Source: Natrialba chahannaoensis JCM 10990 | Lineage (GTDB): Archaea; Halobacteriota; Halobacteria; Halobacteriales; Natrialbaceae | Assembly: GCF_000337135.1 (NCBI RefSeq) | Contig: NZ_AOIN01000008.1 | Coordinates: forward strand, 1 to 60,575 | Reading direction: 5' to 3' | Length of the DNA stretch: 60,575 nucleotides | Part shown: piece by piece, positions 8,087 through 57,009 of the stretch | Layout of the letters: each line of letters opens with the position of its first letter | How positions within the stretch are numbered: the first letter of the stretch is position 1 | Made by a program: the position numbers and the translations under genes | The notes under the pieces: model-generated | Databases searched by the model: none | What the model saw: only the letters and a program-made list of their open reading frames with translations | Told to the model about the DNA's origin: nothing

Positions 8087-8158
8087 TAGTATACATTTCT
8101 GCCAGCCAATGTTAAAACACTGATTGTACACAGTCGCTGATTACGGGCGCTCCAGACC

Positions 8159-20924: not shown

Positions 20925-21077
20925 ATGACAACCGAGAACTCCGATAAGGACATTCAGTTGTACAGAAATAAGCCCTACGGGCTGTATAGAAATAGCTGTT
21001 CAGAACGCCAAACTCCTACACAAAAAGTCACCAAATATCTCTATAAAGCACCGCTAAAGAAGGGTGACTTGAGTTGA
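20925..21077 (+). CDS. Small ORF coupled to RHH copy 2
   Basis: A 50-codon frame from ATG 20925. Its TGA (21075-21077) overlaps the TTG start of the next gene (21074) as TTGA, the same coupling style used throughout this cluster. The product is basic in its second half (KVTKYLYKAPLKKGD) and has no recognised fold. A short repeat, AGCCC-TAC-GGGCT, lies inside it. It may be a leader peptide that couples translation. Confidence 0.4.
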   Translation: MTTENSDKDIQLYRNKPYGLYRNSCSERQTPTQKVTKYLYKAPLKKGDLS

Positions 21078-21634
21078 CCCGGGATTTTTCACCATCGGTT
21101 GGTGTTTCTTCTGGGGACCAGACAGGGAATTCCTCCTCCGATGTTGTCCGACCAAGTGTGACGATTCTGGAACGACATATGCAATTGCTTGATCAAATGG
21201 CAACCGAGAGATATGCTGGGAATCGAAGTGCGTGTCTACGAGCGGCCATAGAGGATCATGCAAGATCACTTGAAGGAGAGAATGAATTTGAGGTTGAACA
21301 GCTAGTAGTGGCCGTACAAGATTTGGAGGAAAGAGTAAGTGATGTTCAAAGATCATTGCAAGAGAATTTAGAGGAAAAGCCAACTGGTGAGGACCTCAAG
21401 CAAACTCCCCAGCACCAGAACAAGGATTCAGAGAGGCAACATCAAATTTATGAACTCATTTCCAGTCAGGGATCAATCTCACTCAATCAGATCGCATCGC
21501 ATGTTGATGCACCTCTGGTGGAGCTCGAGAGTACACTACAAACCTTGTGTGATCGAGGTTTAGTCAATAAAACTAGCTCCTCGGGGCGCTTGGAATACGA
21601 AATTGATGTATCTGGGGTGTCAAATAATGAGTGA
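21074..21634 (+). CDS. RHH/winged-helix DNA-binding protein, copy 2
   Basis: A 186-residue paralogue of the protein at 18995-19528. It has an RHH-like segment (VTILERHMQLLDQMA, then NRSACLRAAIEDHARSLEGE), a coiled coil (residues 75-100) and a winged helix (YELISSQGSISLNQIASHV...LCDRGLV). The only in-frame initiation codon close to the upstream stop is TTG 21074, supported by the TTGA overlap with the small ORF. Its end overlaps the recombinase by 8 bases. The two copies have diverged well beyond a recent duplication. Confidence 0.7.
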   Translation: MTRDFSPSVGVSSGDQTGNSSSDVVRPSVTILERHMQLLDQMATERYAGNRSACLRAAIEDHARSLEGENEFEVEQLVVAVQDLEERVSDVQRSLQENLEEKPTGEDLKQTPQHQNKDSERQHQIYELISSQGSISLNQIASHVDAPLVELESTLQTLCDRGLVNKTSSSGRLEYEIDVSGVSNNE

Positions 21635-22658
21635 GAAAAACAGCGAGATCAAAGATGGGCTAGAGCTAAAGACGGGGTCTAAACTAGCAACTGAATATCT
21701 GCATTCTGAGTGCGGGGCAACAATATCTAGAAACACTGCGAAAACCTATCAGTCGTATTTGAGAGGGTATATCGAGCATTTAGATGAGATTTCGGTGGAA
21801 GTTCTCTCAGCAAAATCTCAGAATGTACGGTCTTACTTGAAAAAGAGAGCTCGACACGGTAGGCGAGAAGGCACACTTAGATTAGATTTAACAGTAATCA
21901 AGGGATTGTACAAATGGATTCGGTTGGAAACAGAAAAAGAGGCTCTAATTGATTATCTTTCTCTCGAGAACATTGATATTGGGAGGTTCCGCACACCTCC
22001 AACGATCGAACGAGAGCCCCTAAATAAAGACGAGTTAGAGGCTTTGTATGATGAACTGGATACTTTTCGAGATCGGCTGATGGTCACAGTTGGAGCAGAA
22101 CTGGGTCCACGTAATATCGACCTCCGAAAAATTAGAGTTGGAGACGTTGACTTTGAGGGCAGAACAATCAGCCTATCAGACTCAAAGGCACGTGATAGGT
22201 ACTCTCTCCCAATCAGTGATACCCTAGCAGTGGAACTAAAACACTGGCTGACTGTGTATCGACCAACGTATCCGTTTTCAGAGGATCACGATTACGTGTT
22301 CCCCTCCAACCAAGGCGGACACCTCTCCGATAGTCGTCTATTGGCAATTGTTAAAGAAGCTGCTCGGAATGCAGGAATACAGGAAAGTCTCGGAGAGTCG
22401 TGGATGTCTGAGCGACAAAAAGATGCACTCGGTACTGACGCAGATATTCGAGAATGGAAAAAAGTGACAGTCCATGCACTTCGTCATACCTTCGGTCATC
22501 TAATGGAAGAAGCAGGGCTCTCGCCTGAAGCCCGACGTGACGCTCTAAACCATAAGTCTACAGAAACCACTGAAAAATATTATTCAAGCAATGCAACGGA
22601 GTACAAAGAATTAATAAGAGAGTTGCTGCACAAGGAACGGGACAACGACGACAACTAA
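21627..22658 (+). CDS. Tyrosine recombinase, copy 2
   Basis: A 343-residue recombinase from ATG 21627, overlapping the RHH gene by 8 bases; an earlier in-frame ATG at 21603 would lengthen the overlap. All catalytic residues are present: Arg in LGPRNIDL, Lys in SDSKARDRYS, HALRHTF, His in LNHKS and Tyr in EKYYSS. The N-terminal SAM-like domain (KTYQSYLRGYIEHL) parallels copy 1. The gene pair duplicates the module at 18995-20529, but the sequence is AT-richer. Confidence 0.88.
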   Translation: MSEKNSEIKDGLELKTGSKLATEYLHSECGATISRNTAKTYQSYLRGYIEHLDEISVEVLSAKSQNVRSYLKKRARHGRREGTLRLDLTVIKGLYKWIRLETEKEALIDYLSLENIDIGRFRTPPTIEREPLNKDELEALYDELDTFRDRLMVTVGAELGPRNIDLRKIRVGDVDFEGRTISLSDSKARDRYSLPISDTLAVELKHWLTVYRPTYPFSEDHDYVFPSNQGGHLSDSRLLAIVKEAARNAGIQESLGESWMSERQKDALGTDADIREWKKVTVHALRHTFGHLMEEAGLSPEARRDALNHKSTETTEKYYSSNATEYKELIRELLHKERDNDDN

Positions 22659-22807
22659 CCCTATCATTCGCTTCTATACTCTTTTCATAGAGATCGCTGT
22701 CAGATAACGAACCTTAACCGCCATCTGGAGATCACCTCCCAAGATACACTTAGACAGTACCCACTGAGTGACCACTGCACTTCTACGAACATGCATTCTT
22801 GGAACCG

Positions 22808-22830
22808 GAGTGGTCACTCAGTGACCACTC
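22808..22830. promoter_or_regulatory. 23-base palindrome before the recombinase pair
   Basis: GAGTGGTCACT-C-AGTGACCACTC is a perfect palindrome with 11-base arms. A further half-site, AGTGACCACT, lies at 22767-22776. The palindrome lies 76 bases upstream of ATG 22906. It is either the operator of this operon or a recombinase crossover site; the extra half-site favours cooperative protein binding. Confidence 0.6.
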
Positions 22831-22905
22831 ATCAGAGAGCACCCTGAAATGGCATAATTTCAGCTCAAGGCTCTATCTTAGTCGAACAATTCTGGAGGTG
22901 ATACA

Positions 22906-23814
22906 ATGACCTGCTTTGAGCAGGTTGAGGGAGCGAGTGACTCTTTTGAGTCTCTTGACAGTGCAACTGAATCATATCTGAGTGAATTGTCAAGCAGTGT
23001 TCCCGACTCTACGTTTTGGTCCCATCAAACTGCAATCATTAAACTCGGAGAGTGGTTCCCAGAATCCAATTTTTCTGAAGTTTGGTTAGAAGACCATCAT
23101 CTATGCCGATTCATTGAATACTTGATAGAGAGCTCTACTCAAGATATTACTACGATCTGTGGATACATAAACTCCTTAATAAATTTCCGATCATACGTTC
23201 ACCAAGAAGATCCTACCATCCTCAAAGCAAGATTGCTATCGAGGATGAAATCATCCGATGTGATAGAGTACAGCGAGATCAATGAACACGTTCTCGGCAT
23301 CTCTACACGTGCTGACAGCCAGAATCTATCCGATCAGATTTCATCGTTGGTAACCTACCTCCGTGAGCGTCAGTTCGGTACTCGAGTTCACGCATATGTT
23401 GAACTCATACTTGATACATGTAGCCAACCTGGGTGTGTGCGATATCTCGACCTTGAGGACGTCAACTCGGATAACGTTACAGTCGTAATCTCGATCCCAG
23501 AAACGCATCTCGTAAGCAGGGCTGGTCTTGTAACACAGAGAGTTGCAAATATTTCACCAGAAACTTCGGAGGCTCTTGAAGAGTTCATAGCCTATGAACG
23601 GAAAGAGCCTACAGAATCCTCTGATAGCCCATTATTGACAACCTCCCATGGGAGGGCGAGTGAATCGACGCTTCGGCGGGAAATGAAACAAGCCAGTGAA
23701 AGTGCAGAAGAATATCCTGGTGTAACGTCACCTCTCACACGACACCAAACTAGTTGCGTCGTCCCCAGTGAAATCTGGCAGTATTCGATTTTGCAGCTCC
23801 TGGAGGAACAATGA
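22906..23814 (+). CDS. Catalytically broken tyrosine recombinase-like protein
   Basis: A 302-residue protein preceded by a full Shine-Dalgarno sequence, GGAGGTGAT (22894-22902), unusual among haloarchaeal genes and a sign of strong translation. The N-terminal half looks like a recombinase core-binding domain. In the catalytic half DTCSQPGCVRYLDLEDV aligns with the active-site segment of the next gene (NGGPRIGGVHSLDV), with Gln in place of the first catalytic Arg. The HxxR box and the nucleophile Tyr are missing because the protein ends early. It is coupled by an ATGA overlap to an intact recombinase. It may be a non-catalytic partner subunit rather than simple decay, since the frame is clean. 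Confidence 0.65.
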   Translation: MTCFEQVEGASDSFESLDSATESYLSELSSSVPDSTFWSHQTAIIKLGEWFPESNFSEVWLEDHHLCRFIEYLIESSTQDITTICGYINSLINFRSYVHQEDPTILKARLLSRMKSSDVIEYSEINEHVLGISTRADSQNLSDQISSLVTYLRERQFGTRVHAYVELILDTCSQPGCVRYLDLEDVNSDNVTVVISIPETHLVSRAGLVTQRVANISPETSEALEEFIAYERKEPTESSDSPLLTTSHGRASESTLRREMKQASESAEEYPGVTSPLTRHQTSCVVPSEIWQYSILQLLEEQ

Positions 23815-24941
23815 ACGAGAATATTGTCCGTCTGCTGTCGGAGATCGATGATCCTGAGACCATCGAAAAAGTGCTGAAGCAAATGGATGTGGACGATACG
23901 TCTCAAGAGAATTCTACTCGAAATAGCTTTGCTCGAGCCACCCTCTCTGATCTCTACAAGCGATTTCTCTCGCGCAGGCAGAATCGAAGCCCGTCAACGC
24001 GGGCCCAATACAAGCGAACGATTCCTCGATTCGTTGAATTCGCGGAAGACAACGACATTACGTACCCAGTAGAGATCTCTTCACCGTTGGTTGATGCGTA
24101 CGTCGACTACTTACAGTCGGAATATGACTCTGACTCAACGATCCTTACGTATACGAAGAACGCACGCACATGGCTTCGGTGGCTCAGCCAACGGGAACTA
24201 TGCGACGAATCAATTTACAGGATCCTCGATAAGGAGGAACTCGGTTTGACTCCAAGAGCTCGTGACGAGGCGATTCCGAAATCTGAAGCCACAGGTCTCC
24301 TTCATCGACTCCGGCGACGTCGACGAGGTTCTGGTATGCATGCTCTCACAGAACTTCTTTGGAATGGTGGACCACGTATTGGTGGCGTACACTCTCTTGA
24401 TGTCCCGGATTTTGACCCCGAGAAGAAAGAACTCCGCTTCCGTCACAGACCGGAAACAGGAACGAGGCTAAAGAACGGGAGCGAAAACTCGAACACGGCT
24501 GGTGATGGTGAACGAAACATTGTGATAAAAGACGAGGTCGTAAGCGCAATTCAATTGTATATCGAGACAGAACGGCCTGACGTTACTGACGAGTACGGCC
24601 GAGAGCCGTTATTTGCGACAGAATACGGACGGGCATCTCGGTCGACACTTCGGCGATGGGTGTACGAAGCTACGAGCTGCCGCTGGAATCCAAAAGATGC
24701 GGATGATTGCTCGTGTGATGGTAGCTGTAATCCTGATTCGAACGTATGCCCGGAGTCATATTACCCACACGCGATCCGTCGAGGATCGATTGTCAGCCAT
24801 CTCAGCGGTGGCCTCCGGAGAGAGCGAGCAAGTGAGCGATTTGACGTCTCTGTGAAGGTGATCAAGAAGCACTACGACCCTCGCACGGAACAAGATCGTC
24901 TCAACGATCGACGCGAAGCAGTCAAGCGTTCGTGGAATTGA
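23811..24941 (+). CDS. Tyrosine recombinase with cysteine-rich insertion
   Basis: A 376-residue integrase with GGAGG (23802-23806) before its ATG, which overlaps the preceding stop. Catalytic residues: Arg in NGGPRIGG, Lys in GTRLKNGS, PHAIRRG for His-x-x-Arg, and Tyr in KKHYDPR. Before the HxxR box is a cysteine-rich insert (DDCSCDGSCNPDSNVC) that probably binds zinc. A decayed copy of the C-terminus lies at 49441-49605. It is probably the active member of a two-subunit recombinase with the broken protein upstream. Confidence 0.88.
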   Translation: MNENIVRLLSEIDDPETIEKVLKQMDVDDTSQENSTRNSFARATLSDLYKRFLSRRQNRSPSTRAQYKRTIPRFVEFAEDNDITYPVEISSPLVDAYVDYLQSEYDSDSTILTYTKNARTWLRWLSQRELCDESIYRILDKEELGLTPRARDEAIPKSEATGLLHRLRRRRRGSGMHALTELLWNGGPRIGGVHSLDVPDFDPEKKELRFRHRPETGTRLKNGSENSNTAGDGERNIVIKDEVVSAIQLYIETERPDVTDEYGREPLFATEYGRASRSTLRRWVYEATSCRWNPKDADDCSCDGSCNPDSNVCPESYYPHAIRRGSIVSHLSGGLRRERASERFDVSVKVIKKHYDPRTEQDRLNDRREAVKRSWN

Positions 24942-27941: not shown

Positions 27942-28268
27942 TTAGAACTTATATCTGCACTTGCATTTTTCTTTCTGTCTCAACACACTTCGACCACACT
28001 CAGGGCAAGTTTTTGTCTTTTCTTGATGCCACGGCCCATAAGGCCAGATTGACAACAATAGTTGATAAATGAGGTTGTTCCAACGAAAGTGTATCTTTCA
28101 CAAGGACTAATCCCCCCGACCCCATTTTCCGACCGCCACGAGCATTGTGTGGGCGTTCCACTCCCGCTGTAGTGGTCGCCGAAGCCGTAGTTGCGCTTGA
28201 TGCTCAGTGGTGTATCGCCCTCTTCGAACCGGTGATCGAGCTTGTACCGCTCCCTGGCTTCAGTATCG
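27942..28268 (-). other. Zinc-knuckle remnant and otherwise unassigned stretch
   Basis: On the minus strand a frame ending at 27942 encodes TCPECGRSVLRQKEKCKCRYKF, split here as a zinc knuckle plus basic tail, with no ATG; a TTG start near 28058 would give about 39 residues. Further upstream (to 28260) another minus frame looks protein-like but is broken by frameshift. It is probably the debris of one or two genes. Confidence 0.3.
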
Positions 28269-28276
28269 TTTTATAG
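28269..28276 (+). promoter_or_regulatory. TATA box of the membrane-anchored NTPase
   Basis: TTTTATAG is centred about 27 bases before ATG 28300. This leaderless arrangement favours ATG 28300 over the upstream GTG at 28207. Confidence 0.55.
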
Positions 28277-28299
28277 TTCACGTTGTTAGTTGTTGGTCA

Positions 28300-31200
28300 A
28301 TGAGAAGTTCTCCGCCGATTCGTGGTGTGCGGTTTTACACGACGTTTGGCGGGGAAACGGACTTTTTCTCCAGCGTGTTGATCCCGACGTGTGTGATCAT
28401 TGCAGGTGTCGTGCTTGCTATTATTCAGTTTCTGCCGACGGATATCGCGTTCCACGAGGCAAATATACTGAGGATATCCACAGTCGGTGTCACTGCGGGG
28501 ATCGTGATACTGGCGTATCTTATCGGGACTGCCGGGAAGTATACGGATCAGGCGGTGTTCCACAGTTACTGGGGCGTAGTACTGTCGCTCGTGCTGTATC
28601 TGCTGATCAGTGTGGTCGCGGTGGTTGTCAGTTTTGGGATTGCGGAGTTCGTGACCGCTCAGACGCTTCTGACGTCGCTTGACTGGCCCACCGTCCTGCA
28701 CGGACTGGCTGAAGGACATATCGTCATGCTCGGGGCCGTTATCGCGACGCTGTCGTCGATCGTGTTAGCGGCCGAGAACCGGCGACGACTCGCTCAACAG
28801 TATCTTGGTATGACGGAGGTAAAACACCTCTTTAAGGAGGAAACGGAGCAGTCACTAGCTCATATCGAGAACGAGATCTCGGGGGTGGGTCATATTGAGC
28901 GGACGGAAACCAACCGCCTCCGAGAGGTGGTCAGGCAGACGGATCATGCGATGCTTCTCGGGGATGGCGGAGTGGGAAAAAGCGGGATCCTCAAGACGGT
29001 CGCGGACGACTGTGAGAAACCGATCCTGTTCTTGGATCTGACCCGGTATCCAGGGATCCAGACCAAATCCGATCTGGCGGAGAAGATCGGTGTCAACGGG
29101 AATATCGACCATGCGATCACGCAGGTTGGTCTCGATGCAGGACTGGTGGTGTTCATCGATCAACTGGACGATGTTGGTGGGACGGAGGTACAGGTCGTCA
29201 CCAACTTCGTGTTTGACACCATCGGGATAGACGGGGTTTCGGTTATCTTTGCCTGTCGAGAACATGATTTGGAAACCCATCCGGAGTACGCGTCTCTGCG
29301 TAACCCATCGGAATTCACGGTCCGCTCCACCGTCCAGCGGTTGAACCCAGCGACAGCAAAGCGACAGATAGAGTCGTTGACGGGTACAGAGCCGTCGGAG
29401 GATTTGGTTGAAGTGGGACGGAATCTCCAGTACCTCGATGTGATTGCGGAGTTGGCGGACGACGGTGTTGATCTGACGAACATTTCGGGGAAGGCCGCGG
29501 TCTGGGAGAAGTATCGGGAGAGCCTCGAAGAGGAATATCAGCCGGGCGATGATGACCGGCGTGGTGGTCGGGTACTCCAGCGTGCCGTTGACTATGCCGT
29601 GGAGGCGACCGAGGACGATTCGAATATCTTCTCGGTGCCGCCCGACCAGGACTGGGCGGACAACCAGCTCTTGAATCGTGGTGTGATCATCGCGTCTAGT
29701 ACGGAACGCGGGAACAGGCGGCACCGGTTCCGACATCCTGATTTTCAGACATACCTGTACGCGTGGGACGCGGTACAGGACGGGGAGGGCTTGAAGGCGG
29801 TGACTGACCGACTGGATGATCGTCTGGGCAAGGACGTGTTCCGGTGGATGCTGTTGCTGTATATCCAGAGTGATACGGCACTTGAGGATCAGTTCCCGAA
29901 CCTGAGTCAGACGCCGATGACCGGGGATGCAACCCAGTCGTTCCTGGAAGAACTGCTCGATGCAGATAATGGGCTGGGATATTATGCGACGACTGCAATC
30001 CTTGACGAGATCAAGACCTGGGATGCCGAGACCAATCCGGAGCTCGCGGACACGGTACTCGCAAAGCTCGAGGGACGCGAGGAACTCTACCGGTATTTCT
30101 TCGGGCCTGATACAGATCCGTCGTGGGCGTATGCCCTGCTTGAACGCGGCTCATTCGATGATCCGGGTCCCGTGGCGATAGGGTTCCTTGGTGACATCGC
30201 CCCGGAACATCCGGAAACGGTCAGTGAGCTTGTGGCTGCCGTCGAAACCCAGGATCTGGCGTTACAGGGACTTCTCATCTCTGTGATCCGCGAGCTTCCG
30301 GTCGACGACGCAGCGTCTCATACAGATTTGGTGGTGGATCTGTTTGCCGAGTCGCAGCTGGAACGCGACAGGGTCAGTTTCAGGGCCGTCCAGTTGCTGG
30401 GAGATTTTATCAAGAAGGGGCGACCGGATGCCGGTCTGGATCTTCTCGCGGTCGTTACCGAGCCGCACCGACCGGACGATGGCAGGAAGCCCGTTGCCAA
30501 GGTCGAACTTCATACACTGAGTAACTTACTTGAGGATACGCTGGAAACGCTGATCGACGAGCATCCCGTTCGGTGTATCGATGTGCTGGAGGCGAATCTG
30601 CGTGATACCGTGCGTATGGAAGCTGACTTGAAGGAATGGGAGGTGAATACTGTTGTCGGATATTCTCAGTCCCCGATCGCCAGCTCTGATTTCGACCGTC
30701 CGGGACACCATCATCTACGTGGGTTGTTAACTGGGACGTTGCGGGAGGCGTCAGAGATCTGGCTTGATGGTGAATCGGCCGATATGCGCCGTGAAACGAT
30801 CGAGGCATATCTCACGGGTATTGCTCTCTTCCGGCGGCTGGGGTTCCATCTCCTGAACCGGTATGCGGATAGCTGTCCGGATCTGGTGCGCCGAGAGTTA
30901 CAGGATCAGGAGAACTACCGGGAGCACCTGACCCAGCAGGACTTTCTCAAGCTTCTTCGGGACCAGTTCGCTGATCTGTCCGACTCGGACCACGAACAGG
31001 TTGTCCAGGTTATCTGTTCGGTCCCTGTTGAAGACGATCTGGAAGAACTTGCCGAGCAGCGAAGCGAACAGTACGAGGACTATACCGCCGAGGAGCTCTT
31101 TGAACAGCGTCGGGATCACTGGCTCCGTGAACGATTGTGGTTAATCCGGTCGGATCTACCGCAGGCGGGTGAACAGGTCCTGTCCCGTCTTCTGGATAAG

Positions 31201-32829
31201 TATGACGATGAACCCGGTGATTTGCTCTCCTCGGGCCGTGCGCGGATGGGGGCCATCTCGCAAGAGGCTCCGAGGCCGACCGACGAACTGCGGACGATGG
31301 CACCCGGGGAGTTACTCCGGTTCTGCATCGAGTGGGAGCCTGATACCAATCAGGGCTGGGAAGAAGCCGATGATGGCGGATTCCGGGAGGTGAGTCGTCG
31401 GGGACTGGCCGAGGCGGCTGTGGAGGTGATGCTTGAAGATCCGTCCCGGTACGAGGGGCAGATCCCGAGGCTTCGACAGGCTGATTCGATCTACGCGACC
31501 GAACTGCTGAACCAGGTGCGCAAGACCCTCGATGACGATCCCGAGTCGTTGCGCGACGGCTTCCCGTGGGGACCGGTGTTCGAGCTCTGCGATGTGATCG
31601 CGGCGAACCCAAGCGACTGGGATGATTCGGCACGGATCGCGGCAGCCCGTCTGCTCAAAGCAGGGGTGACGACGGATGCCTACCGGTATCTACTGGAGTA
31701 CGGGGAGCTGAAGGCGCTGCTCGTCGCATTTCTCGATGATCCGGACCCGTCACCGGAACGAGATCGGCCACCGGAGGGGCATGCTGGACACAACAACCCA
31801 TTCCAGGTCGCGCTCAATGCAGTACGGTCGCTCGCACTTGATGGTCTGATCATTTACGCCGTTCGCACCGCCACCCAGCGGGAGTTCGACGGGTACGCGG
31901 AGGAGAGAGTGTCCGGGATCGATCAGGATGTCCGGGAGCAGTTGATATCGATGCTCGACGACACGTCATTGGCTGTGAGGGCGGTATACGGCCACAGGCT
32001 ACAGAAAATCTGGTGGCTGGACCATGACTTCGTCCACGAACATCTTGAAACACTGTTCCCACGGCAACAGAACACCGAGAGCCGGAACCGGTTCTCCGCT
32101 GCCTGGGATGCCTATGTTTCGTTCAACACATTTCATGTTAACCTGTATCCTGTGCTGCGCCCGTACTATTTCCACAGTATTGATCTCGTCGCCGAAGACG
32201 CCACCACGGACATCAACCAAGCGCCCGAAGGTCTTGCGTACAACATCCTCTTGGCGTACATCCATGGCTACGAAGAGTTGGATGACACAAACAGCCTCGT
32301 CACCTATCTTTATGACCGGGATGCTCCTGACTTTGCCAGGCAGATGGCGTGGGGGGTATGGCGGTCAGGAAAAGACAACGACGAGGTCCGGCAGAAATGG
32401 CACAGGGTAGAAGCACTCTGGAAGATGCGACTCGAGCAGATCGACGATGTTGAGGCACACATCAGCGAGATACAGTGGTTCGTCGAATGGTTGACGCTCA
32501 TCCAAGAGCAGGTCGCATTTGAGGACATCTCCAAGTTGATCGGCCGTTCACTGCCTTTCATCGCGAAACAGCGGCGCATGTGGGAAACGGTCGAAAACTA
32601 TCTGGCGACGCAGGCATCTGATCATCCGGAGACCGTTGTCACTCTTTATCGGGAGCTGATGGATCAGGAAGCCAGCCCCTATCCTGTTCGTTTCAGTGAG
32701 GAGACTGCAACTGTCCTCAAGCCAGCCCTCGACGAACCCGATGTTCGCGGATACGCGCTCGATATCGCGGAACAGTTCGCCAAACACGGTGATGACGATG
32801 CGCGATCTTTTCTCGAAAACAACACCTGA
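28300..32829 (+). CDS. Membrane-anchored STAND-like NTPase
   Basis: About 1509 residues. The N-terminus has four predicted transmembrane helices (about 24-44, 58-76, 90-113, 130-148). A linker leads to a P-loop ATPase: Walker A LLGDGGVGKSG near 209-219, Walker B LVVFIDQLDD near 264-273 and an arginine-rich sensor segment (VIFACREHD). The remaining 1000 or so residues are helical, with repeated two-helix units and many acidic residues, typical of a HEAT/TPR-like sensing array. Such proteins bind an intruder signal through the repeats and respond through the N-terminal effector; a membrane effector suggests depolarisation or cell arrest on activation. It stands alone with its own promoter. GC is higher than in the neighbours, which suggests separate acquisition. 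NTPase and membrane domain are seen; the defence role is inferred. Confidence 0.72.
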   Translation: MRSSPPIRGVRFYTTFGGETDFFSSVLIPTCVIIAGVVLAIIQFLPTDIAFHEANILRISTVGVTAGIVILAYLIGTAGKYTDQAVFHSYWGVVLSLVLYLLISVVAVVVSFGIAEFVTAQTLLTSLDWPTVLHGLAEGHIVMLGAVIATLSSIVLAAENRRRLAQQYLGMTEVKHLFKEETEQSLAHIENEISGVGHIERTETNRLREVVRQTDHAMLLGDGGVGKSGILKTVADDCEKPILFLDLTRYPGIQTKSDLAEKIGVNGNIDHAITQVGLDAGLVVFIDQLDDVGGTEVQVVTNFVFDTIGIDGVSVIFACREHDLETHPEYASLRNPSEFTVRSTVQRLNPATAKRQIESLTGTEPSEDLVEVGRNLQYLDVIAELADDGVDLTNISGKAAVWEKYRESLEEEYQPGDDDRRGGRVLQRAVDYAVEATEDDSNIFSVPPDQDWADNQLLNRGVIIASSTERGNRRHRFRHPDFQTYLYAWDAVQDGEGLKAVTDRLDDRLGKDVFRWMLLLYIQSDTALEDQFPNLSQTPMTGDATQSFLEELLDADNGLGYYATTAILDEIKTWDAETNPELADTVLAKLEGREELYRYFFGPDTDPSWAYALLERGSFDDPGPVAIGFLGDIAPEHPETVSELVAAVETQDLALQGLLISVIRELPVDDAASHTDLVVDLFAESQLERDRVSFRAVQLLGDFIKKGRPDAGLDLLAVVTEPHRPDDGRKPVAKVELHTLSNLLEDTLETLIDEHPVRCIDVLEANLRDTVRMEADLKEWEVNTVVGYSQSPIASSDFDRPGHHHLRGLLTGTLREASEIWLDGESADMRRETIEAYLTGIALFRRLGFHLLNRYADSCPDLVRRELQDQENYREHLTQQDFLKLLRDQFADLSDSDHEQVVQVICSVPVEDDLEELAEQRSEQYEDYTAEELFEQRRDHWLRERLWLIRSDLPQAGEQVLSRLLDKYDDEPGDLLSSGRARMGAISQEAPRPTDELRTMAPGELLRFCIEWEPDTNQGWEEADDGGFREVSRRGLAEAAVEVMLEDPSRYEGQIPRLRQADSIYATELLNQVRKTLDDDPESLRDGFPWGPVFELCDVIAANPSDWDDSARIAAARLLKAGVTTDAYRYLLEYGELKALLVAFLDDPDPSPERDRPPEGHAGHNNPFQVALNAVRSLALDGLIIYAVRTATQREFDGYAEERVSGIDQDVREQLISMLDDTSLAVRAVYGHRLQKIWWLDHDFVHEHLETLFPRQQNTESRNRFSAAWDAYVSFNTFHVNLYPVLRPYYFHSIDLVAEDATTDINQAPEGLAYNILLAYIHGYEELDDTNSLVTYLYDRDAPDFARQMAWGVWRSGKDNDEVRQKWHRVEALWKMRLEQIDDVEAHISEIQWFVEWLTLIQEQVAFEDISKLIGRSLPFIAKQRRMWETVENYLATQASDHPETVVTLYRELMDQEASPYPVRFSEETATVLKPALDEPDVRGYALDIAEQFAKHGDDDARSFLENNT

Positions 32830-42004: not shown

Positions 42005-42448
42005 TTATCGGTCTGAATTGCTGGGAAGATATTGTCGTCGCTGTCGCAACTTCTCACGCTCAGACCGTTGATCATAATGACGGTCAAGAACTGCCCTATT
42101 AGCATCCATACGATCGCTGACTGCGTTTTCAGGAACATCTGATTGGAGAAAGTGAGTGATCGCTCCTTGATGCACTGGGTGTGGGCTGAGTGACGAAGCA
42201 CACGCGTGCGAACGCTCAGTGGGCAACGCATCACACTCCGCAAGATCTTGGTCGTGAGGACAACTATGGGTGTCTCGCCCGCTGAATTTGTTGAGATTGT
42301 CAATACCGTCCTGTTCACACCACTGCACGAATTGCTTGAGTCGATATCGGTGAGACTGGATTGTCGCGCCCGCAAGTTCGTGACTCCGTTCACCGAGATA
42401 CATCTGCATAGCCTCTGCTGGGGAGAGTGGTTCAAGGTTGTCTGTCAT
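42005..42448 (-). pseudogene. Tyrosine recombinase with in-frame internal deletion
   Basis: An intact 147-codon frame nearly identical at both ends to the recombinase at 55999-57009. Residues 1-60 keep the SAM-like DNA-binding domain up to FSGRDTH; the frame then jumps to SCPHDQDLAECDALPTE, losing about 190 residues including the first catalytic Arg and the Lys. The remaining HxxR box reads HPVHQG, so its Arg is lost too, while the Tyr of RHYDQR remains. It cannot catalyse recombination, but could still be made and bind sites. Confidence 0.8.
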
Positions 42449-43802: not shown

Positions 43803-44120
43803 TCAGTCTCGAGGTCGAGGTACCAGCGTCGACGCTCGTCTGATTGGTGAATCGTCGAGAGGGTCTGCTTCGTCACATTCGGTGTGTCGCCCCCACCGAT
43901 CGGTAGCTATCGCCGTTCTCGTGGTACTCGAGGAGTCGTCGAACGTGTCGCGGTCGGCGCTCGCCCCCGAGGCGGGGCCATCGCGATAGACCTCGACGTC
44001 TCCGAGGGAAAGGTCGCGGTGGTCGAGCCACTCGCGAATGTCTTCGACTTGGTGCTCCTCGCTATGATCGTCGGTCGAGCGTCTGAGATAGATGCCGACA
44101 TGGTCTCTGAGGTCGGTCAT
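43803..44120 (-). pseudogene. Truncated serine resolvase
   Basis: The first 60 residues (VGIYLRRSTDDHSEEHQVED, then IREWLDHRDLSLGDVEVY and SGASADRDTF) are the N-terminal catalytic domain of a haloarchaeal serine recombinase, with the Ser in RRST. After that the frame leaves the family. The flanking bases 43451-43802 and 44121-44314 hold no other gene I can support. It is a decayed transposon or plasmid resolvase. Confidence 0.7.
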
Positions 44121-44314: not shown

Positions 44315-45811
44315 TCATGACCTATCCCCTTTCCAGAAACCAATTCTAAGGAAGGTTTCGACGATTTCCTTTCGGGTCGAATGTACAGCGAGTAGAAGGT
44401 AAGCAAACCAGAATATAACCAAAATCTGCCAAATGTGGGTCCCGGTTTCGGACACGAAACCCGAAAACGGGAGCAAGATGATGAAGACCGCACCGACCAG
44501 AAGCGTGATCCTGACATTCTTCGTGAAGAATATCTCGGTAGCATAGAAGACGAGGAGGCCAGCCATCGCGAGAATTACTAAGTTGCTGTTTACGATAGAG
44601 TAGAACACGGTCAAAAATATTCCAGCGGCAAGGTACGTCAATGAATCACTTTCTAGCCGTGGGCGGTTGCTCACTAAATAACAGCTACCCGGAATCCATT
44701 TGCGAACCAATCCGAACTCAGGAACAGCTGCGATGGAGTAAACCAAGGTTGCACCGACGATAACGAGATAAACCACTACGGACTCCGACCCCATCATTAC
44801 GAAAGCGAGCGGATTCGCTTGAGCGGTGGCCTGTACTGCCTCTGTGAGCATCAGACCGACCAATATCGGCATCAAGCTACGGACCAACGGCCTGTTCGCC
44901 GCCTGTTTCTCAAGATCATAATCGTATTTTGAACCCCCTCGCCAGTAGGTGACCGAGTCGGGAACCCGAGTCAGGAAGGACATCCAGTGAATGATAACCA
45001 CTCCAAAGAAAATCATCTGAAAGAGTGCGGTAAAGTAGAGAAGGGCTCCCGATGGACTGGCAAGCACATCCTGTGTGAAAACAAGGGAAATAAAAAATGG
45101 GAAGAGTTCGGTTAGAGTTGTGAGGTTGAGGAATAGTCCTGCATAAATCAGTCCGGACGTTGCAATTCCTTCTGGATATTTCCCAGCGAGAAGAATGGTA
45201 CGGAAAAGGATTTCGTCGGGCCCTTGTGGCAATTCGGTGCGCTCAATTCTTCCTGAAAACTTGGCGTAAAGCGCATATGCACCAACTCCAGCTAAAACGA
45301 CATCTAGTACCAATCCAAGTTCGAGTAGTAAACCTGCCGTCAAGGCGAGTAGTGCCGTCAAACAAGCGTATCGGACGCTCATCGAAAGGCTTTGCTCCGG
45401 AGTGAAGCCTACCAGAAGGAGCATCACAATCGAAAGGACAGTCAAGCCAACAAGTGAGGAAAGATAATACAGGAATCCCACTTGATGGCCAATGACAAAA
45501 GATAACAGAAGTCCAACGGTACCGAAGAAAAATGCATAGCCTTGATTCAATGTGTTCGCTTCTGGTTCGAATCTACTGATAACGATCGCTAGAAGAATTA
45601 CAAAGAGCGCAAAGTTAAGTCCCAACTCTGCACCGAACACGTCCACCGTCGGTAGATCGACAACCCACAAAGTAATTGGAAGAAGCAACTCGAGTGGCGT
45701 GAGCCAGTCGCTTAATTTCACCGTGAGACGGGCAATTAGGGCGAACAGATACGCGAAAAGGACGAAGAGAAATACGTAGTATCGGTTCATCTCAGGGATT
45801 GATCTCGCCAT
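44315..45811 (-). CDS. Polytopic membrane protein downstream of the CoiA-like nuclease
   Basis: About 498 residues from ATG 45811; ATG 45790 is a possible alternative. Some 12 to 14 hydrophobic helices are spread through the length, with a cytoplasmic loop (WRGGSKYDYDLEKQAANR) near residue 310. I recognise no transporter motif. It follows the CoiA-like nuclease gene by about 60 bases on the same strand and probably shares its transcript. It could be a channel or import component. Confidence 0.65.
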   Translation of the reverse strand: MARSIPEMNRYYVFLFVLFAYLFALIARLTVKLSDWLTPLELLLPITLWVVDLPTVDVFGAELGLNFALFVILLAIVISRFEPEANTLNQGYAFFFGTVGLLLSFVIGHQVGFLYYLSSLVGLTVLSIVMLLLVGFTPEQSLSMSVRYACLTALLALTAGLLLELGLVLDVVLAGVGAYALYAKFSGRIERTELPQGPDEILFRTILLAGKYPEGIATSGLIYAGLFLNLTTLTELFPFFISLVFTQDVLASPSGALLYFTALFQMIFFGVVIIHWMSFLTRVPDSVTYWRGGSKYDYDLEKQAANRPLVRSLMPILVGLMLTEAVQATAQANPLAFVMMGSESVVVYLVIVGATLVYSIAAVPEFGLVRKWIPGSCYLVSNRPRLESDSLTYLAAGIFLTVFYSIVNSNLVILAMAGLLVFYATEIFFTKNVRITLLVGAVFIILLPFSGFVSETGTHIWQILVIFWFAYLLLAVHSTRKEIVETFLRIGFWKGDRS

Positions 45812-45872
45812 GCTTCGAACAATATTCGTATCAGAGGTCGGGCGTATGTGCCCGGTAGTCGCATCGACCTGG

Positions 45873-47222
45873 TCACCACCACCACGATTCTTCAACCTCT
45901 ACTGAGTCAGGGAGGTGATCCTGATCGACGGTCTCGTAGCATTTAATGCATTGAACAACGTCCTTAGTCCGGCCGGTATCAGCCCAACTGTGATTACCAC
46001 CTTCGTCGCATGGGTCAATTGGAGTTTGATTCCCCTGTTGCTTCCGTTGCGAACTTTTATCCTCGATCTCAGCTGAATCGGGAAGACGCTCCCTTGTGAC
46101 GGTCGTGTAGCATCGGTTGCACTGAACCGTACCGTACTCGTTATATTTGACCCAGTTGTGCTCGATGGTATCGTGTAGGATTGAGTCGCACGGCGGGATC
46201 TCTGCGGTCGTGGTAGTGCTCTGGTTGTTGAGTTTCTGTGTAACCGATCCCGGGAGTCTATCCATGTCGACCGAGACACCACATTTCCGACAACTGGCTT
46301 CGTGCTGATCTGCCCAGTGTTCTCCCCAATCATGTTCCCCGTAGTCGCAGTCAGGGATCCCGTGAGGATCCCACCCTCCGTAGCCGTGTTGCGCTCCAGT
46401 CGTCTCCACGGTGGTCGACGACTGCGTGTTCGTATGTTCAGGGGGATCGGGATCAGGCACCTTCGGAACGTCCGGGCGCTCGAGAGGGCTCAAGAAGCCC
46501 ATGTTGTCGTATAGATATCGCGTTCGTTCGTGACTGTACGTACGGTTTATCCGGCAGCGAGCGCAGTACTCGAGCTCGTCGAACTCCTTCCAGACGTGAT
46601 CACAATCGGGGATCGGATCCTGCCAGAGGAGATCGGTCTCGGCGACGTCCTCGAGGTCGCCTTTGTTGAAACGGGAGACAGAGTGAGCGAATGCCGTATC
46701 TGATTTGAACGCTGTCTCGAGGCGATCGAATTTGAACTCCGTTTCCGCAAAATCACGGGGGAGTGCCCAGTAGACACTGTACTCGCACTCGAGGTAGTCA
46801 CGTGTCACGATCGGGATGTCTTTCCCCTTGTTCCGAAACTGGACTTCGACAATAAGACCCGACTCATAGACAGGATGTACATGATTGAACTCGACGAACG
46901 CGTCTGCTCGACGGAACTCTGCACCTGAGGCCGTATGTGATACATCGAGGTGGACCTCCGGGGCACACCGGGCGAACTCGCCGTCGAACTCTTGACGAAG
47001 CTTTGAGACTGCCAGCGATTTCATTTTCCGATGCTCATCCGATTCACCCTTTCCATCACATGAGTCAGCATCACGTGAATGGACGAAGTGACGAGCTCGT
47101 CCGTTGACGGATGGCCCTCGAGGTGACATCTTGCTTCCACACGACAGGCATGTCACCGTCTCACCATCAGAGACTTGCTCTGGAATGACTCGCTCCCCGT
47201 CGCGTTCAGCTAGGAATGCCAT
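45873..47222 (-). CDS. CoiA-like nuclease with four zinc knuckles
   Basis: A 449-residue protein. The N-terminal zinc finger (CLSCGSK, Cys25/Cys28, with RHFVHSRDADSC) and the helix SDEHRKMKSLAVSKLRQEF match competence CoiA-like proteins. RRADAFVEF (Asp107) and LIVEVQF (Glu126, Gln128) give a PD-(D/E)xK-type site with Gln replacing Lys, as in CoiA. After about residue 200 come four repeated units, each C-x(1-9)-H-x-W...C-x-x-C, at 207-223, 292-314, 345-371 and 405-428; the last three end in a RLPxSVE-like segment. The repeats look like tandem zinc ribbons for binding DNA or RNA. The protein heads a two-gene unit with a polytopic membrane protein, which suggests action on DNA entering the cell. 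Confidence 0.75.
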   Translation of the reverse strand: MAFLAERDGERVIPEQVSDGETVTCLSCGSKMSPRGPSVNGRARHFVHSRDADSCDGKGESDEHRKMKSLAVSKLRQEFDGEFARCAPEVHLDVSHTASGAEFRRADAFVEFNHVHPVYESGLIVEVQFRNKGKDIPIVTRDYLECEYSVYWALPRDFAETEFKFDRLETAFKSDTAFAHSVSRFNKGDLEDVAETDLLWQDPIPDCDHVWKEFDELEYCARCRINRTYSHERTRYLYDNMGFLSPLERPDVPKVPDPDPPEHTNTQSSTTVETTGAQHGYGGWDPHGIPDCDYGEHDWGEHWADQHEASCRKCGVSVDMDRLPGSVTQKLNNQSTTTTAEIPPCDSILHDTIEHNWVKYNEYGTVQCNRCYTTVTRERLPDSAEIEDKSSQRKQQGNQTPIDPCDEGGNHSWADTGRTKDVVQCIKCYETVDQDHLPDSVEVEESWWW

Positions 47223-48297
47223 CTCTCACCACCTGTTCGTACCAAGACATTATAAATCCAAATCAAAACTGAATCGGAATCTCCAGCCCCTTTCCGGGTG
47301 CGCTCGGTAGACAAGTGACGTGAGTCGCCATCAGTTGGAGTTTTGCGAAGATAACACCTCCCGGTAGAGACGCGATTTATTATGATCTAACGATAGATCG
47401 ATCGTCGCTCTAGTCAGTCTCGTACGGAATAACGGTTCGCTTGATGTGGAACTTCAGTACAAGGGCGAATGTCGCAGGAGATTCGGCATGGTTTACAAAG
47501 ATAGTTATTTCCCACCACGAAGAAAACATACAGGAGTAAAAGAAGCTAAGGAAGAGATATTTCAACTAATATTGAAAATGATCCCGTCAAGGCTTTTTGA
47601 TCAGTGGCTCGCACTGTTCACTCCACGCTGATCAATGCTGTCGTCTTCTTGGCACCGGGTGCGTTCGCTATGGACCGGATCACTGGCCTCAACCGCACAT
47701 CGAGAAATTCGAGGTCGGTGCCGAACTCCTCGTCAAACGGTATCCGAAGTTCCGGAACCTCTTCGGCTATCACGAGACGCCTTTCTTGTTTTCTATTCGA
47801 AATCTGCAAAAGCACGTTATACCGACAGGATGAATCTACTGATCCACTGAATGACTGGTTCGTTGACTCTGCCGTGAGACCACAGAAATGTTGGTGCTGA
47901 ACTCATCCTCTATATTTAGCAGGCGACTTTTGGCAGAGTTCGGATAGATCGATAGCCACATCAGTAACTGCTTGCCGCTCGTCGGGTATTCGTGGAGAAG
48001 GGATCAACCAGTTCGATGACATCCTCTTCCCCATCGAGTGGGAAATAAGAGTTCCCATGGGTAGTCTCACTTCCCACCTTGAGACGATCATACGATTGCA
48101 ATCCTATCTGGGGAGACCACAGAACGTCTACACGGCTACTGTATAGCGGTCTCTTGTAAGAGTAACAAATCGGGAAGGAAACATTTCCCACAGCCAACTA
48201 ACCAACTACTCACCTCGAACTATTCAGTTCGTTCTGTACCTTCTCGACCGACCGGTTACTGTTCCAATCTGCGAGACACTACGTCATCTTGTAGGTA
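47223..48297. other. Gene-poor stretch with degraded coding remnants
   Basis: About 1.1 kb with no convincing intact gene. On the minus strand two broken frames look protein-like: 47618-47815 (ELRIPFDEEFGTDLEFLDVR) and 47961-48197 (GNSYFPLDGEEDVIELVDPF). They may be parts of one decayed gene. A short AT-rich plus-strand frame (47490-47630) is unassigned. Confidence 0.35.
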
Positions 48298-49311
48298 TTA
48301 TCCATCTGGAAGGTACTGTCGGCGTTGTTCGAGTTTTTCTCGAGCGGACCGTTGATCGTAATGTCGCTCCAGTACGTCCATCCCAACGTCCATCCGATCA
48401 CTCACGATGCGTTCAGGGGTATCTGATTGGAGATGATGCGTGATGGACCCCCGACGAACAGGATGTGGACTCAGTGCTGACGGACACTTGTGAGCATACT
48501 CTGTCGGGTGTGCTTCACACTCGCCGATATTCCGGTCGTGTGGACACTTATTCTCGTATACACACGGGCGTGTATATTGGTACGTGATCGTTCGTCCGCG
48601 GTTACGGCTGAGGCGACTGCGCTTCGTCGCAAATAGCGGAGTTCGACCATGGTCATCGACTACCCCTGGATGGTTGACCTCGAGCCAGTCGTCCAGGACC
48701 AGACAGACGCGATCATTCAACGCAACCAGCCGCTCGCTTTTCGAGCCGTTCTTGAGAGAGGTCCCCTCGTCTGGTCTGTGTACTAGAGCCAGGTATTGAT
48801 CATCGGATCTGTAGTCCTCGACATCGATTCCGGTCGCAGCACCGATGCGAAGCCCAGTGTGCCAGAGTACTTCGAGCAGCGCGTGCTCGAGTCTTGCATA
48901 GCGATATCGCTCGAGGTGATCCAGAATTTTCTGAGCGCGATCTCTGCTGAGTAACTCGTCGCGTGCGTCGTCAGCTGTGGTCGTCGGCAGGATGATTTTC
49001 TCATCGAGTCCTGCTTGCACTGCATCGATACTCGCACAGAACCGGAGGAAGACACGCAAGGTCGCCAGTTGTCCCTTCATCGACGCAGTGGCGAGTTCGT
49101 CTTCGTTCCGTCGTTTGACGCGGAACCGGTGGATATCGCGTGCGGAGAACTCGTTCAGGTTGTCAATCTCCTCGTTTTCACACCACTGTACGAACTGCTT
49201 GAACCGGTACTGATGAGACTGGGTCGTCGCGTCCGTGAGTTCGTGCTGTCGTTCGTCGAGGTACATTTGCATAGCCTCTGCTGGTGCGAGGGGTTCGGGG
49301 GTGTCTGTCAT
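48298..49311 (-). CDS. Tyrosine recombinase, copy B
   Basis: A 337-residue integrase, intact. Catalytic residues: Arg in HTGLRIGA, Lys in GTSLKNGSK, HPVRRGS, and Tyr in RHYDQRS. A cysteine-rich insert before the HxxR box (CVYENKCPHDRNIGECE...KCPSA) probably binds zinc. By eye about three-quarters of its residues match the copy at 55999-57009. Its upstream 100 bases carry the same repeat as copies A and C. Confidence 0.9.
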   Translation of the reverse strand: MTDTPEPLAPAEAMQMYLDERQHELTDATTQSHQYRFKQFVQWCENEEIDNLNEFSARDIHRFRVKRRNEDELATASMKGQLATLRVFLRFCASIDAVQAGLDEKIILPTTTADDARDELLSRDRAQKILDHLERYRYARLEHALLEVLWHTGLRIGAATGIDVEDYRSDDQYLALVHRPDEGTSLKNGSKSERLVALNDRVCLVLDDWLEVNHPGVVDDHGRTPLFATKRSRLSRNRGRTITYQYTRPCVYENKCPHDRNIGECEAHPTEYAHKCPSALSPHPVRRGSITHHLQSDTPERIVSDRMDVGMDVLERHYDQRSAREKLEQRRQYLPDG

Positions 49312-49728: not shown

Positions 49729-51699
49729 ATGGGATCATATCAATGCGATAACTGCGGTGAACCATTTTGCACACTAACTAGGCTTCGTCTCCACGAGGAT
49801 AATTGTGAAGATATAAATATGGAAATTGATAGTTCCCGCGTTACTGCACTCTCTCAAGTTGGAACTGGGAGTCAATTCCAGTCACAAATGGATCGACGAC
49901 GAAACCGGTTGGAAGAGCATGGCATCGACTCTATTACTGAGGCTGTTCAGCAGCTTAGAAGGAATATTCATGAACACGGTCCTCAAGAATTTGTTAAAGA
50001 ACTTTGGTATCATGAACTTATTCGGTCCACTTCCTACGAGATGTTAGACGAAGATACAGGATTGCCACCCAAGATGGTCGAGTACCTCTTTGGACTTGCC
50101 ACAACAATTCCACCAACCGAGCAACAATCTTCAGCGGTCAATTTCTACGATGTAATCGACTCGCTATCTTTAGTATATGATCAGCTTAGACTGAAGCAAG
50201 ACGAGGTGCTAGCTAACGCAGATTCAGCGGAGGAGCGACGAAAAGCGCACGTTCAGCACAGTCAACTGGAACGAGAACTAACCACTGGACGATTTGCTCA
50301 TGGAACACAACGTCGGGAGTTTACACGCCGAGTCTACTCACGTGTAGACGAAGAACTATCGGATATTTTGGGACTTAGTGCATCGGAGGCTGTCTCACTT
50401 GCCGATGATCTCCTTCGCTTCCATCAGGCAACACTGGGGGACAAACAACTCGCCCCAATTATACAGCACGTTGTTGACATCGGTGATGGACCGTTTCAGG
50501 TGCAATCTGAAGACGCCATAGCAAAAGCCCAAACCGATCCTCGGTCAGCTTTCCCCTCCATTTGGGTTAATGTAGCTAAATATGATAATCATCGACTCAA
50601 TCCACTAGGATCAGATTTTGAAAACGGGGAATATGAGAGATATGAAGATACATTTGGGACAATTCGGGAGGTCGTCCCTGAACTAGGGTTTACTTCTACT
50701 GAGTTCCGCGAAACGCTAGAGGGGGAACTGAATAATCTAGACTCGTTCTTCGAATCAATGAGTATCGGTATCGGCGAGTATGAAAGTAATCCAGAGGACT
50801 TGTCTGGTTCATTTTCGAAGTTTGATTACCCATTTGACCATAACCCCATTCATGAATACCCTCTTTTGAGTGATCAGGACGGTCGTTTCTATCTTGGACC
50901 TCAGAACTCCCTCTGGTTTTCTCTTTCAACCAGGTTTCGCTATAATATCCTTGACAGCAAACATGAAGGGATCGGCACAAGGAAGATTGGAGAAGGTGCA
51001 GAGGACTGGGTAGGAGAATGTCTCGAAAACGTCAATGATGAAAATGTGTGTATATTAACTAGCGTTGACTATGATTATCGGGATGGCGAATCAGATTTTG
51101 TGCTGCTATACGACGATACAGTAGTTGTTATTGAAGTCAAAACTAGAGGATTACGACTTGGCTCTCGCCTCGGTCCGTTTGATTCGTTTGAGAAAATTCA
51201 GCAAGATGCTGAAGAAGTCATTGGTGAACCCTATGAGGAACAAGCCTTGAAATTGCTTAATGGGATTAAGGATGGTAATGTAACTAACCTTCAAGGCGAT
51301 GAAGGGTCTGTTCGGGTCGATCCTGACCGTTTTTCGGATTATGTCCCCGTCCTTGTAGTTGCTCGTCCACTAGACTATGCAGGGACGATTCTCCATACAG
51401 ATCTCCTTGATCTAGGAGAGAACCCACCATATATTACAGATATCTATAGCCTGCAAACCATTTGCCAACACCTCTCTGGGAGTGGTGCCCTACTCAACTA
51501 CATTAAAAAACGAATCAAGGTTGGAGTTACTGGAAGAGCTCTCAGTATTGACGAGATCGACTACCTTGGTGAGTACCTTGATCATGGCTTAGAGTATCCC
51601 GAAGTCCCTGAAGAGGGGTTGGTCAATATAATACACGCTGGTTCTCATTTGGAAAGGATCTATGACACCGGCTTAGTGGATGACATGGAACACTTGTGA
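49729..51699 (+). CDS. Zinc-finger PD-(D/E)xK nuclease, 656 aa
   Basis: The N-terminus is a classical C2HC finger (CDNCGEPF...LRLHEDNC, residues 6-26), rare in archaea. Residues 30-400 are mostly helical with no recognised domain. The C-terminal third holds a restriction-nuclease fold: GESDFVLL (Asp456), VVVIEVKTRG (Glu469, Lys471), preceded by a helix with Glu (GEGAEDWVGECL). It resembles NERD or restriction-like proteins that act alone. AT-rich for a haloarchaeal gene. It begins the second cargo block between recombinase copies B and C. Confidence 0.7.
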   Translation: MGSYQCDNCGEPFCTLTRLRLHEDNCEDINMEIDSSRVTALSQVGTGSQFQSQMDRRRNRLEEHGIDSITEAVQQLRRNIHEHGPQEFVKELWYHELIRSTSYEMLDEDTGLPPKMVEYLFGLATTIPPTEQQSSAVNFYDVIDSLSLVYDQLRLKQDEVLANADSAEERRKAHVQHSQLERELTTGRFAHGTQRREFTRRVYSRVDEELSDILGLSASEAVSLADDLLRFHQATLGDKQLAPIIQHVVDIGDGPFQVQSEDAIAKAQTDPRSAFPSIWVNVAKYDNHRLNPLGSDFENGEYERYEDTFGTIREVVPELGFTSTEFRETLEGELNNLDSFFESMSIGIGEYESNPEDLSGSFSKFDYPFDHNPIHEYPLLSDQDGRFYLGPQNSLWFSLSTRFRYNILDSKHEGIGTRKIGEGAEDWVGECLENVNDENVCILTSVDYDYRDGESDFVLLYDDTVVVIEVKTRGLRLGSRLGPFDSFEKIQQDAEEVIGEPYEEQALKLLNGIKDGNVTNLQGDEGSVRVDPDRFSDYVPVLVVARPLDYAGTILHTDLLDLGENPPYITDIYSLQTICQHLSGSGALLNYIKKRIKVGVTGRALSIDEIDYLGEYLDHGLEYPEVPEEGLVNIIHAGSHLERIYDTGLVDDMEHL

Positions 51700-55998: not shown

Positions 55999-57009
55999 TC
56001 AATGTGGGAGATAACGACGTCGCTGTCGAAGCTTTTCGCGTTCTGACCGCTGGTCATAGTGGCGGTCCAGAACAGTCTCGCTGGCGTCCATCCGATCACT
56101 CACGACGTTCTCAGGAACGTCAGATTTGAGAAAATGAGTGATCGCACCTCGTCGAACTGGATGAGGACTCAACGAGGAAGGACAGGCATGCGAGCGCTCG
56201 GTAGGTAGCGCGTCACAACTGTTGAGATTCCGATCATGAGGGCAGCTATCAGTGTAGACGCACGGGCGCGTGTACTGATAGACGATCGTCCGACCACGGG
56301 TCCGACTCAAGCGATCGATTTTCGTCGCAAACAGCGGCTTTCGGTCGTACTGATCAACGACGCCCGGATGATTGACCGAGAGCCAGTCATCTAATACCTC
56401 GCAGACTGGGTCACTCAGTGCGACGAGTCGTTCGCTCTTTCGCCCGTTCTTGAGAGAAGTCCCCTCCTCAGGCCGATGAACGAGTGTGAGATACTGCTCG
56501 TCAGCGTTGTAGTCTTCAATATCGAGCCCAATTGCTGCGCCGATACGAAGTCCCGTGTGCCAGAGAACTTCCATCAATGCGTGTTCTAAGCGCGCGTATC
56601 GGTATTGATCGAGAAATTCTAAGATCTGCTGGGCACGATCCGGATTCAGCAACTCGGATCGAGCATCGGCTTCGGTCGTGGTCGGAAGGATGATCTTCTC
56701 GTCGAGCCCTTGCTCTACTGCATCGATCGTCGCACAGAAGCGGAGGAACATTCGCAAGGTTGCGAGTTGCCCTTTCATGCTGGCTGTTGCGAGCTCATCT
56801 TCGTTTCGTCGTTTGACGCGGAAGCGATGGATATCTCGCCCGCCGAACTCGTTGAGATTGTCGATACCGTCCTGTTCACACCACTGGACGAACTGCTTGA
56901 GACGATACCGGTGAGACTGGATCGTCGCGTCCGCGAGTTCGTGGCTTCGTTCGTTGAGATACATCTGCATCGCCTCTGCTGGGGCGAGTGGTTCGAGGTT
57001 GTCTGTCAT
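55999..57009 (-). CDS. Tyrosine recombinase, copy C
   Basis: A 336-residue integrase, intact: Arg in HTGLRIGAAIG, Lys in GTSLKNGRK, HPVRRGA, Tyr in RHYDQRS, and the cysteine-rich insert CVYTDSCPHDRNLNSCD. It is the apparent parent type of the deleted copy A. It is the last gene before the GC-rich host-like region, so it may be the integrase that placed the island. Confidence 0.9.
   Translation of the reverse strand: MTDNLEPLAPAEAMQMYLNERSHELADATIQSHRYRLKQFVQWCEQDGIDNLNEFGGRDIHRFRVKRRNEDELATASMKGQLATLRMFLRFCATIDAVEQGLDEKIILPTTTEADARSELLNPDRAQQILEFLDQYRYARLEHALMEVLWHTGLRIGAAIGLDIEDYNADEQYLTLVHRPEEGTSLKNGRKSERLVALSDPVCEVLDDWLSVNHPGVVDQYDRKPLFATKIDRLSRTRGRTIVYQYTRPCVYTDSCPHDRNLNSCDALPTERSHACPSSLSPHPVRRGAITHFLKSDVPENVVSDRMDASETVLDRHYDQRSEREKLRQRRRYLPH

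What the first reader, a model, noticed from the sequence alone, without database searches (positions are those of the whole stretch)
44315..47222. CoiA-like nuclease with four zinc-knuckle repeats beside a polytopic membrane protein
CoiA-like proteins help DNA uptake in bacteria. Here the domain carries four C..HxW..CxxC units, three with a shared RLPxS tail, and the next gene encodes a many-helix membrane protein. This could be an entry-linked nuclease for incoming DNA or a DNA-transfer component.
Basis: partly seen in the sequence, partly recalled or inferred. Interest (0 to 1): 0.65.

Follow-up and report, generated by a model that had tools for sequence, protein, structure and literature searches.

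The report
CoiA-type nuclease with zinc-ribbon tail
This salt-loving archaeon carries, inside an anti-virus gene island, a mobile gene for a probable DNA-cutting enzyme related to the bacterial competence protein CoiA with four zinc-binding repeats added; the membrane gene beside it looks like a chance neighbour, not a partner.

Summary
ORF 45873-47222(-) encodes a 449-residue protein with a CoiA-type zinc pocket, a complete PD-EXQ nuclease site, and four C..HxW..CxxC units (0 of 20,000 shuffles give even two; dN/dS 0.17 against its ortholog). A profile of its clade matches bacterial CoiA at 98.6% probability, including the CoiA of an spxA-mecA-coiA-pepF locus, although the protein alone gives no CoiA hit in Pfam. 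Relatives occur in 99 of 392 genomes of the order and on 65 plasmids. The units are confined to one of the family's two clades.

The proposed pairing with the membrane protein fails. The closest intact ortholog (87%) lacks that gene. DNA similarity to relatives stops at the nuclease stop codon, after which the relatives agree with each other and the window does not. The membrane gene has one distant relative in 392 genomes, with no nuclease beside it. The nuclease has its own TATA-like box.

Context favours restriction or defence: a low-GC, integrase-rich defence island here, and GmrSD restriction genes as immediate neighbours in 15 loci of the sister clade. Conjugative-plasmid settings of relatives keep a DNA-transfer role open. 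Function is inferred, not shown. New variant of a known kind.

The parts
45873..47222 (-). CoiA-superfamily nuclease with C-terminal zinc units, 449 aa
   Evidence: dN/dS 0.17 against the N. gari ortholog
47031..47189 (-). CoiA_N-like zinc pocket (invariant C25, C28, H45, H48, C55) running into the E60-S61-xx-H64 helix
   Evidence: invariant columns of 30 homologs; CoiA_N hit in 16 of 30 members
46767..47045 (-). PD-(D/E)XK-type core, residues 60-152, with E60, D107, E126-x-Q128, K134 (PD-EXQ site)
   Evidence: invariant columns; hhalign to bacterial CoiA; EXQ variant described for CoiA in PMC1189080
46554..46604 (-). zinc unit 1, CDHVWKEFDELEYCARC
46281..46349 (-). zinc unit 2, followed by RLPGS
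46110..46190 (-). zinc unit 3, followed by RLPDS
45939..46010 (-). zinc unit 4, followed by HLPDS
47251..47256 (-). TTTATA, likely TATA box of the nuclease gene, 29-34 nt before the ATG; the ~62 nt 5' flank travels with the gene
   Evidence: flank shared with N. gari up to 47284; sequences compared; promoter role inferred
45872..45873 (.). junction: similarity to relatives ends at the nuclease stop codon; L033, L035, L036 and L037 share the following bases with each other and not with the window
44315..45895 (-). polytopic membrane protein ORF (likely start ATG at 45811); neighbour, judged not part of a unit

Best explanation
A stand-alone, mobile nuclease gene of the CoiA superfamily, most likely an accessory restriction or defence enzyme. 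The N-terminal zinc pocket and PD-EXQ core (shown by conservation) would cut DNA (inferred from the fold family). The four C-terminal zinc ribbons would bind the target nucleic acid or a partner (inferred). The gene has its own TATA-like box and moves between islands and plasmids as cargo; it was recently joined to an unrelated membrane gene. That the substrate is foreign DNA is an inference from genomic company.
For: CoiA kinship: hhalign 98.6%, E 6e-16, for the clade profile and 95.3%, E 2e-8, for the window pair alone; 16 of 30 relatives hit CoiA_N and 7 CoiA_nuc. Complete active site invariant over 30 sequences. Purifying selection on core and tail alike, dN/dS 0.175 and 0.161. Island context: GC near 0.5 against 0.64 beyond 58 kb; Avs2-like, GmrSD, SNF2 helicase, methyltransferases, PDC-S27-like ATPase, PIN gene and tyrosine recombinases. 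Sister clade: GmrSD immediately adjacent in 15 loci, SNF2-type helicase adjacent in 5. A CoiA domain is among validated E. coli anti-phage systems (PMC9519451). Gene-sized mobility.
Against: No GmrSD or helicase next to this particular gene; the nearest clade lives mostly on plasmids, some beside transfer genes. No PADLOC hit. No activity data. Predicted structure unusable (pLDDT 36).
Confidence: 0.55

Rival explanations
1. A plasmid-transfer or DNA-uptake component: the nuclease processes DNA as it enters or leaves during conjugation or uptake, as was proposed for CoiA in bacteria.
For: Relatives of the same clade form tandem pairs in 8 loci; in 5 loci of the clade Exo VII (xseA) and TrbL_3/VirB6-like genes are nearby. 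65 plasmid records carry a relative, with an MPF_T call in PLSDB for those inspected.
Against: The window gene lies in a chromosome-like or large-contig defence island with no transfer gene recognised near it; the best ortholog sits next to mutS; the pairs are divergent from, not inside, the transfer operon.
Confidence: 0.25
2. Entry-linked two-gene unit: nuclease and membrane protein act together at the membrane on incoming DNA.
For: Same strand and close spacing, about 61 nt from the nuclease stop to the likely ATG.
Against: Only locus with the pair among 93; membrane gene nearly orphan; junction exactly at the nuclease stop codon; the nuclease has a promoter-like box of its own.
Confidence: 0.06
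3. A repair or recombination nuclease of mobile elements, or a decaying passenger with no present role.
For: Interrupted or fragmentary copies in at least four related genomes; mutS and integrases as neighbours.
Against: dN/dS 0.17 between intact copies; all catalytic and zinc residues kept.
Confidence: 0.14

Closest known systems
Bacterial CoiA (COG4469; PF25164 CoiA_N, PF06054 CoiA_nuc)
   Same: Zinc pocket CxxC..H.xH..C, ES..H..K helix, D..ExQ nuclease core, order of domains.
   Different: C-terminal part replaced by C..HxW..CxxC zinc units; not in a competence locus; window protein below Pfam detection on its own.
Haloarchaeal CoiA-family proteins, sister clade (GmrSD-linked)
   Same: Same N-terminal and nuclease domain.
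   Different: No zinc units in any of 60 proteins; 15 have GmrSD as immediate neighbour.
CoiA-domain anti-phage system from the E. coli pangenome (PMC9519451)
   Same: CoiA domain in a defence gene.
   Different: Sequence not compared here; mechanism there not read beyond the passages.
Haloarchaeal plasmid tandem CoiA-like pairs (e.g. Salarchaeum japonicum NZ_CP085325)
   Same: Same clade, one to three zinc units.
   Different: Two adjacent paralogs with a divergent xseAB-TrbL_3 operon; window copy is single and island-borne.

Membership tests
CoiA superfamily (CoiA_N + CoiA_nuc) | N-terminal zinc pocket CxxC...HxxH...C before the ES..H motif | tested here: met
   C25, C28, H45, H48, C55, E60, S61, H64 invariant in 30 homologs; CoiA_N hit in 16 of 30
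CoiA superfamily (CoiA_N + CoiA_nuc) | PD-EXQ active site | tested here: met
   D107, E126, Q128, aligned with bacterial CoiA by hhalign; variant described in PMC1189080
CoiA superfamily (CoiA_N + CoiA_nuc) | Direct match of the protein to the Pfam or NCBIfam models | tested here: not met
   No CoiA hit up to E 10 for the window protein; PF06054 search finds none in the genome. Membership rests on profile comparison and on relatives, which is why it is stated for the superfamily only
CoiA competence factor (ortholog) | CoiA C-terminal part and competence gene neighbourhood | tested here: not met
   Zinc-unit tail instead; island context; not filed as a competence CoiA
CoiA competence factor (ortholog) | Needed for natural transformation | not testable with these tools
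   needs knockouts
Known anti-phage defence systems (PADLOC 2.0.0) | Match to a described defence family | tested here: not met
   No PADLOC hit for nuclease or membrane protein
Two-gene nuclease-membrane unit | Conserved linkage of the two genes | tested here: not met

The most novel reading that the evidence does not exclude
Haloarchaeal CoiA-type nucleases are an unrecognised family of restriction effectors: one clade works as the partner of GmrSD type IV restriction enzymes, the other, to which the window belongs, is aimed by tandem zinc ribbons and is used by plasmids and islands against competing DNA.
Probability: 0.28. Interest if true: 0.55.

Novelty: new variant of a known kind. Interest (0 to 1): 0.36.

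Why it matters
CoiA is known as a late-competence protein whose molecular job is unsettled. A large archaeal branch without competence loci, sitting in defence islands, beside GmrSD restriction genes and on plasmids, suggests that the fold serves as a DNA-cutting module outside competence. The sister clade gives a recurrent two-gene pair (CoiA-type nuclease and GmrSD) that can be tested directly in haloarchaea.

Tried and rejected
Membrane gene as partner: rejected. Viral origin: no relative found in the phage collection or in IMG/VR by the pattern searches used; the IMG/VR pattern search is blunt, so this is weak. Structure prediction gave unusable models (membrane pLDDT 44.9; nuclease 36.4), so no fold search was run. 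PDB search with the family profile found only chance-level zinc proteins. Chromosome or plasmid nature of contig C8 (368 kb) was not settled. Attachment sites around the three related integrases were looked for by alignment: about 100-120 nt upstream of the genes is shared, no clear att site. A literature search for CoiA in haloarchaea found nothing in the held library.

Full report
What is there. The minus strand at 45873-47222 encodes a 449-residue protein; downstream on the same strand lies a 526-residue ORF, 44315-45895, with about nine hydrophobic segments. The four C..HxW..CxxC units are at residues 207-223, 292-314, 345-371 and 405-428, behind the nuclease core. Units 2-4 are followed by RLPGS, RLPDS and HLPDS. 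Among 20,000 shuffles of the tail, 123 had one such unit and none had two.

Family. The protein has no significant Pfam or NCBIfam match by itself. Its N-terminal 180 residues have relatives in 99 of 392 genomes of the order, 48 of 95 genera, and in 65 plasmid records, mostly haloarchaeal; none was found among 50,697 phage records. In an alignment of 30 relatives C25, C28, H45, H48, C55, E60, S61, H64, D107, E126, Q128 and K134 are invariant. Sixteen of the 30 match CoiA_N and seven CoiA_nuc. A relative in the tree (L093) finds bacterial 'competence protein CoiA family' genes at E about 1e-4; one of them lies in an spxA-mecA-coiA-pepF locus. Profile comparison of the window's clade with five bacterial CoiA-family proteins gives 98.6% probability, E 6e-16, and the window with its ortholog alone gives 95.3%, E 2e-8. 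The PD-EXQ site is the variant described for CoiA in PMC1189080. So it is a member of the CoiA superfamily; it is not shown to be a competence factor.

Two clades. A tree of 101 nuclease domains splits into two sides with 98/100 support. All unit-bearing proteins lie on one side, 30 of 44 rows with one to four units; none of the 60 proteins of the other side has one. The window and its ortholog have four, the most found. The tail is therefore a clade feature, with more copies here.

Selection. Against the Natrinema gari ortholog (87% identity) dN/dS is 0.167 overall, 0.175 for residues 1-200 and 0.161 for the tail. All unit cysteines, histidines and tryptophans are kept. Both halves are under purifying selection.

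The membrane gene is not a partner. It has one relative in 392 genomes (25% identity; a two-sequence profile finds no more), none on plasmids or phages. That relative, in L074, has no nuclease homolog in its 19 kb locus; upstream of it are genes for an HRQ1/MrfA-like helicase, a metallophosphoesterase and an SbcC-like ATPase. Among 93 loci with a nuclease homolog, only the window has the membrane gene. DNA similarity to N. gari runs from 47284, about 62 nt before the ATG, to 45873, the stop codon, and in L035, L036 and L037 it also ends at or within a few bases of that point. Beyond the stop codon L033, L035, L036 and L037 resemble one another for 13 or more bases, L035 and L037 for more than 400, and the window does not. 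The simplest reading is that the window lineage acquired a new downstream neighbour at this junction. The nuclease has a TTTATA box at 47251-47256 within the shared flank (function inferred). The TTG start of the membrane ORF lies inside the nuclease gene; ATG 45811 is more plausible.

Context here. The first 56 kb of the window have GC near 0.5, the end 0.64. The region holds an N6/N4 methyltransferase with an SNF2 helicase, GmrSD, an Avs2-like protein, further methyltransferase and nuclease genes, a PDC-S27-like ATPase, a PIN gene and many tyrosine recombinases. Three copies of one recombinase, one with an internal deletion joining residues 1-61 to 255-336, lie at 42005, 48298 and 55999, so the nuclease and membrane genes sit between a remnant and an intact copy. 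This is a defence island built by repeated insertion.

Context of relatives. In the sister clade GmrSD genes are immediate neighbours in 15 loci: 8 on the same strand 6-63 bp downstream, 7 convergent at 6 bp; SNF2-type helicase genes are adjacent in 5. The copies within each arrangement are closely related, so these are perhaps two or three independent associations spread by transfer, not 15. In the window's clade 8 loci have tandem pairs, and five loci have xseA and TrbL_3-type genes nearby; the Salarchaeum plasmid shows the pair divergent from xseA, xseB and conjugal-transfer genes.

How it probably works. Shown: zinc pocket, intact nuclease site, conserved zinc-unit tail, mobility as a gene-sized piece, absence of a conserved membrane partner. 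Inferred: DNA cleavage, nucleic-acid or partner binding by the units, and use against foreign DNA. A CoiA domain occurs in an experimentally selected anti-phage system (PMC9519451), so a defence use has precedent; that sequence was not compared. A transfer role remains the main rival.

Limits. Structure models were unusable. The genome sample is even but partial. Gene calls in the loci come from a simple script, so small neighbours may be wrong. The list of neighbours depends on a clustering cut-off.

Noticed in passing
42005-42448, 48298-49311, 55999-57009: Three copies of one tyrosine recombinase with a shared ~100-120 nt upstream stretch; the first has an internal deletion joining residues 1-61 to 255-336.
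   Followed up: partly
19525-24941: Four tyrosine-recombinase-like genes in a row on the + strand.
   Followed up: no
10277-13981: Avs2-like protein (PADLOC E 6e-182) in an archaeal island.
   Followed up: no
595-8131: N6/N4 methyltransferase, SNF2 helicase and GmrSD restriction gene close together.
   Followed up: no
28207-32829: 1540-residue ORF with no Pfam match at E 0.001.
   Followed up: no
43803-44120: Short ORF that reads like the N-terminal fragment of a serine recombinase (by eye, not tested).
   Followed up: no
49729-51699: 656-residue protein with an N-terminal C2H2-like finger and a NERD nuclease-related domain.
   Followed up: no
L080:8156-11767, L083:6300-9221 and similar loci: Recurrent CoiA-type nuclease plus GmrSD pair in haloarchaea, in tandem or convergent arrangement.
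   Followed up: partly
L138:13451-18378: Tandem CoiA-type pair divergent from xseA-xseB and conjugal-transfer genes on a Salarchaeum plasmid.
   Followed up: partly
L035, L034, L037: Small charged protein of about 107 aa ending in NDNRYYYWQWREGDKIKSKYKGPV near nuclease remnants and elsewhere.
   Followed up: no
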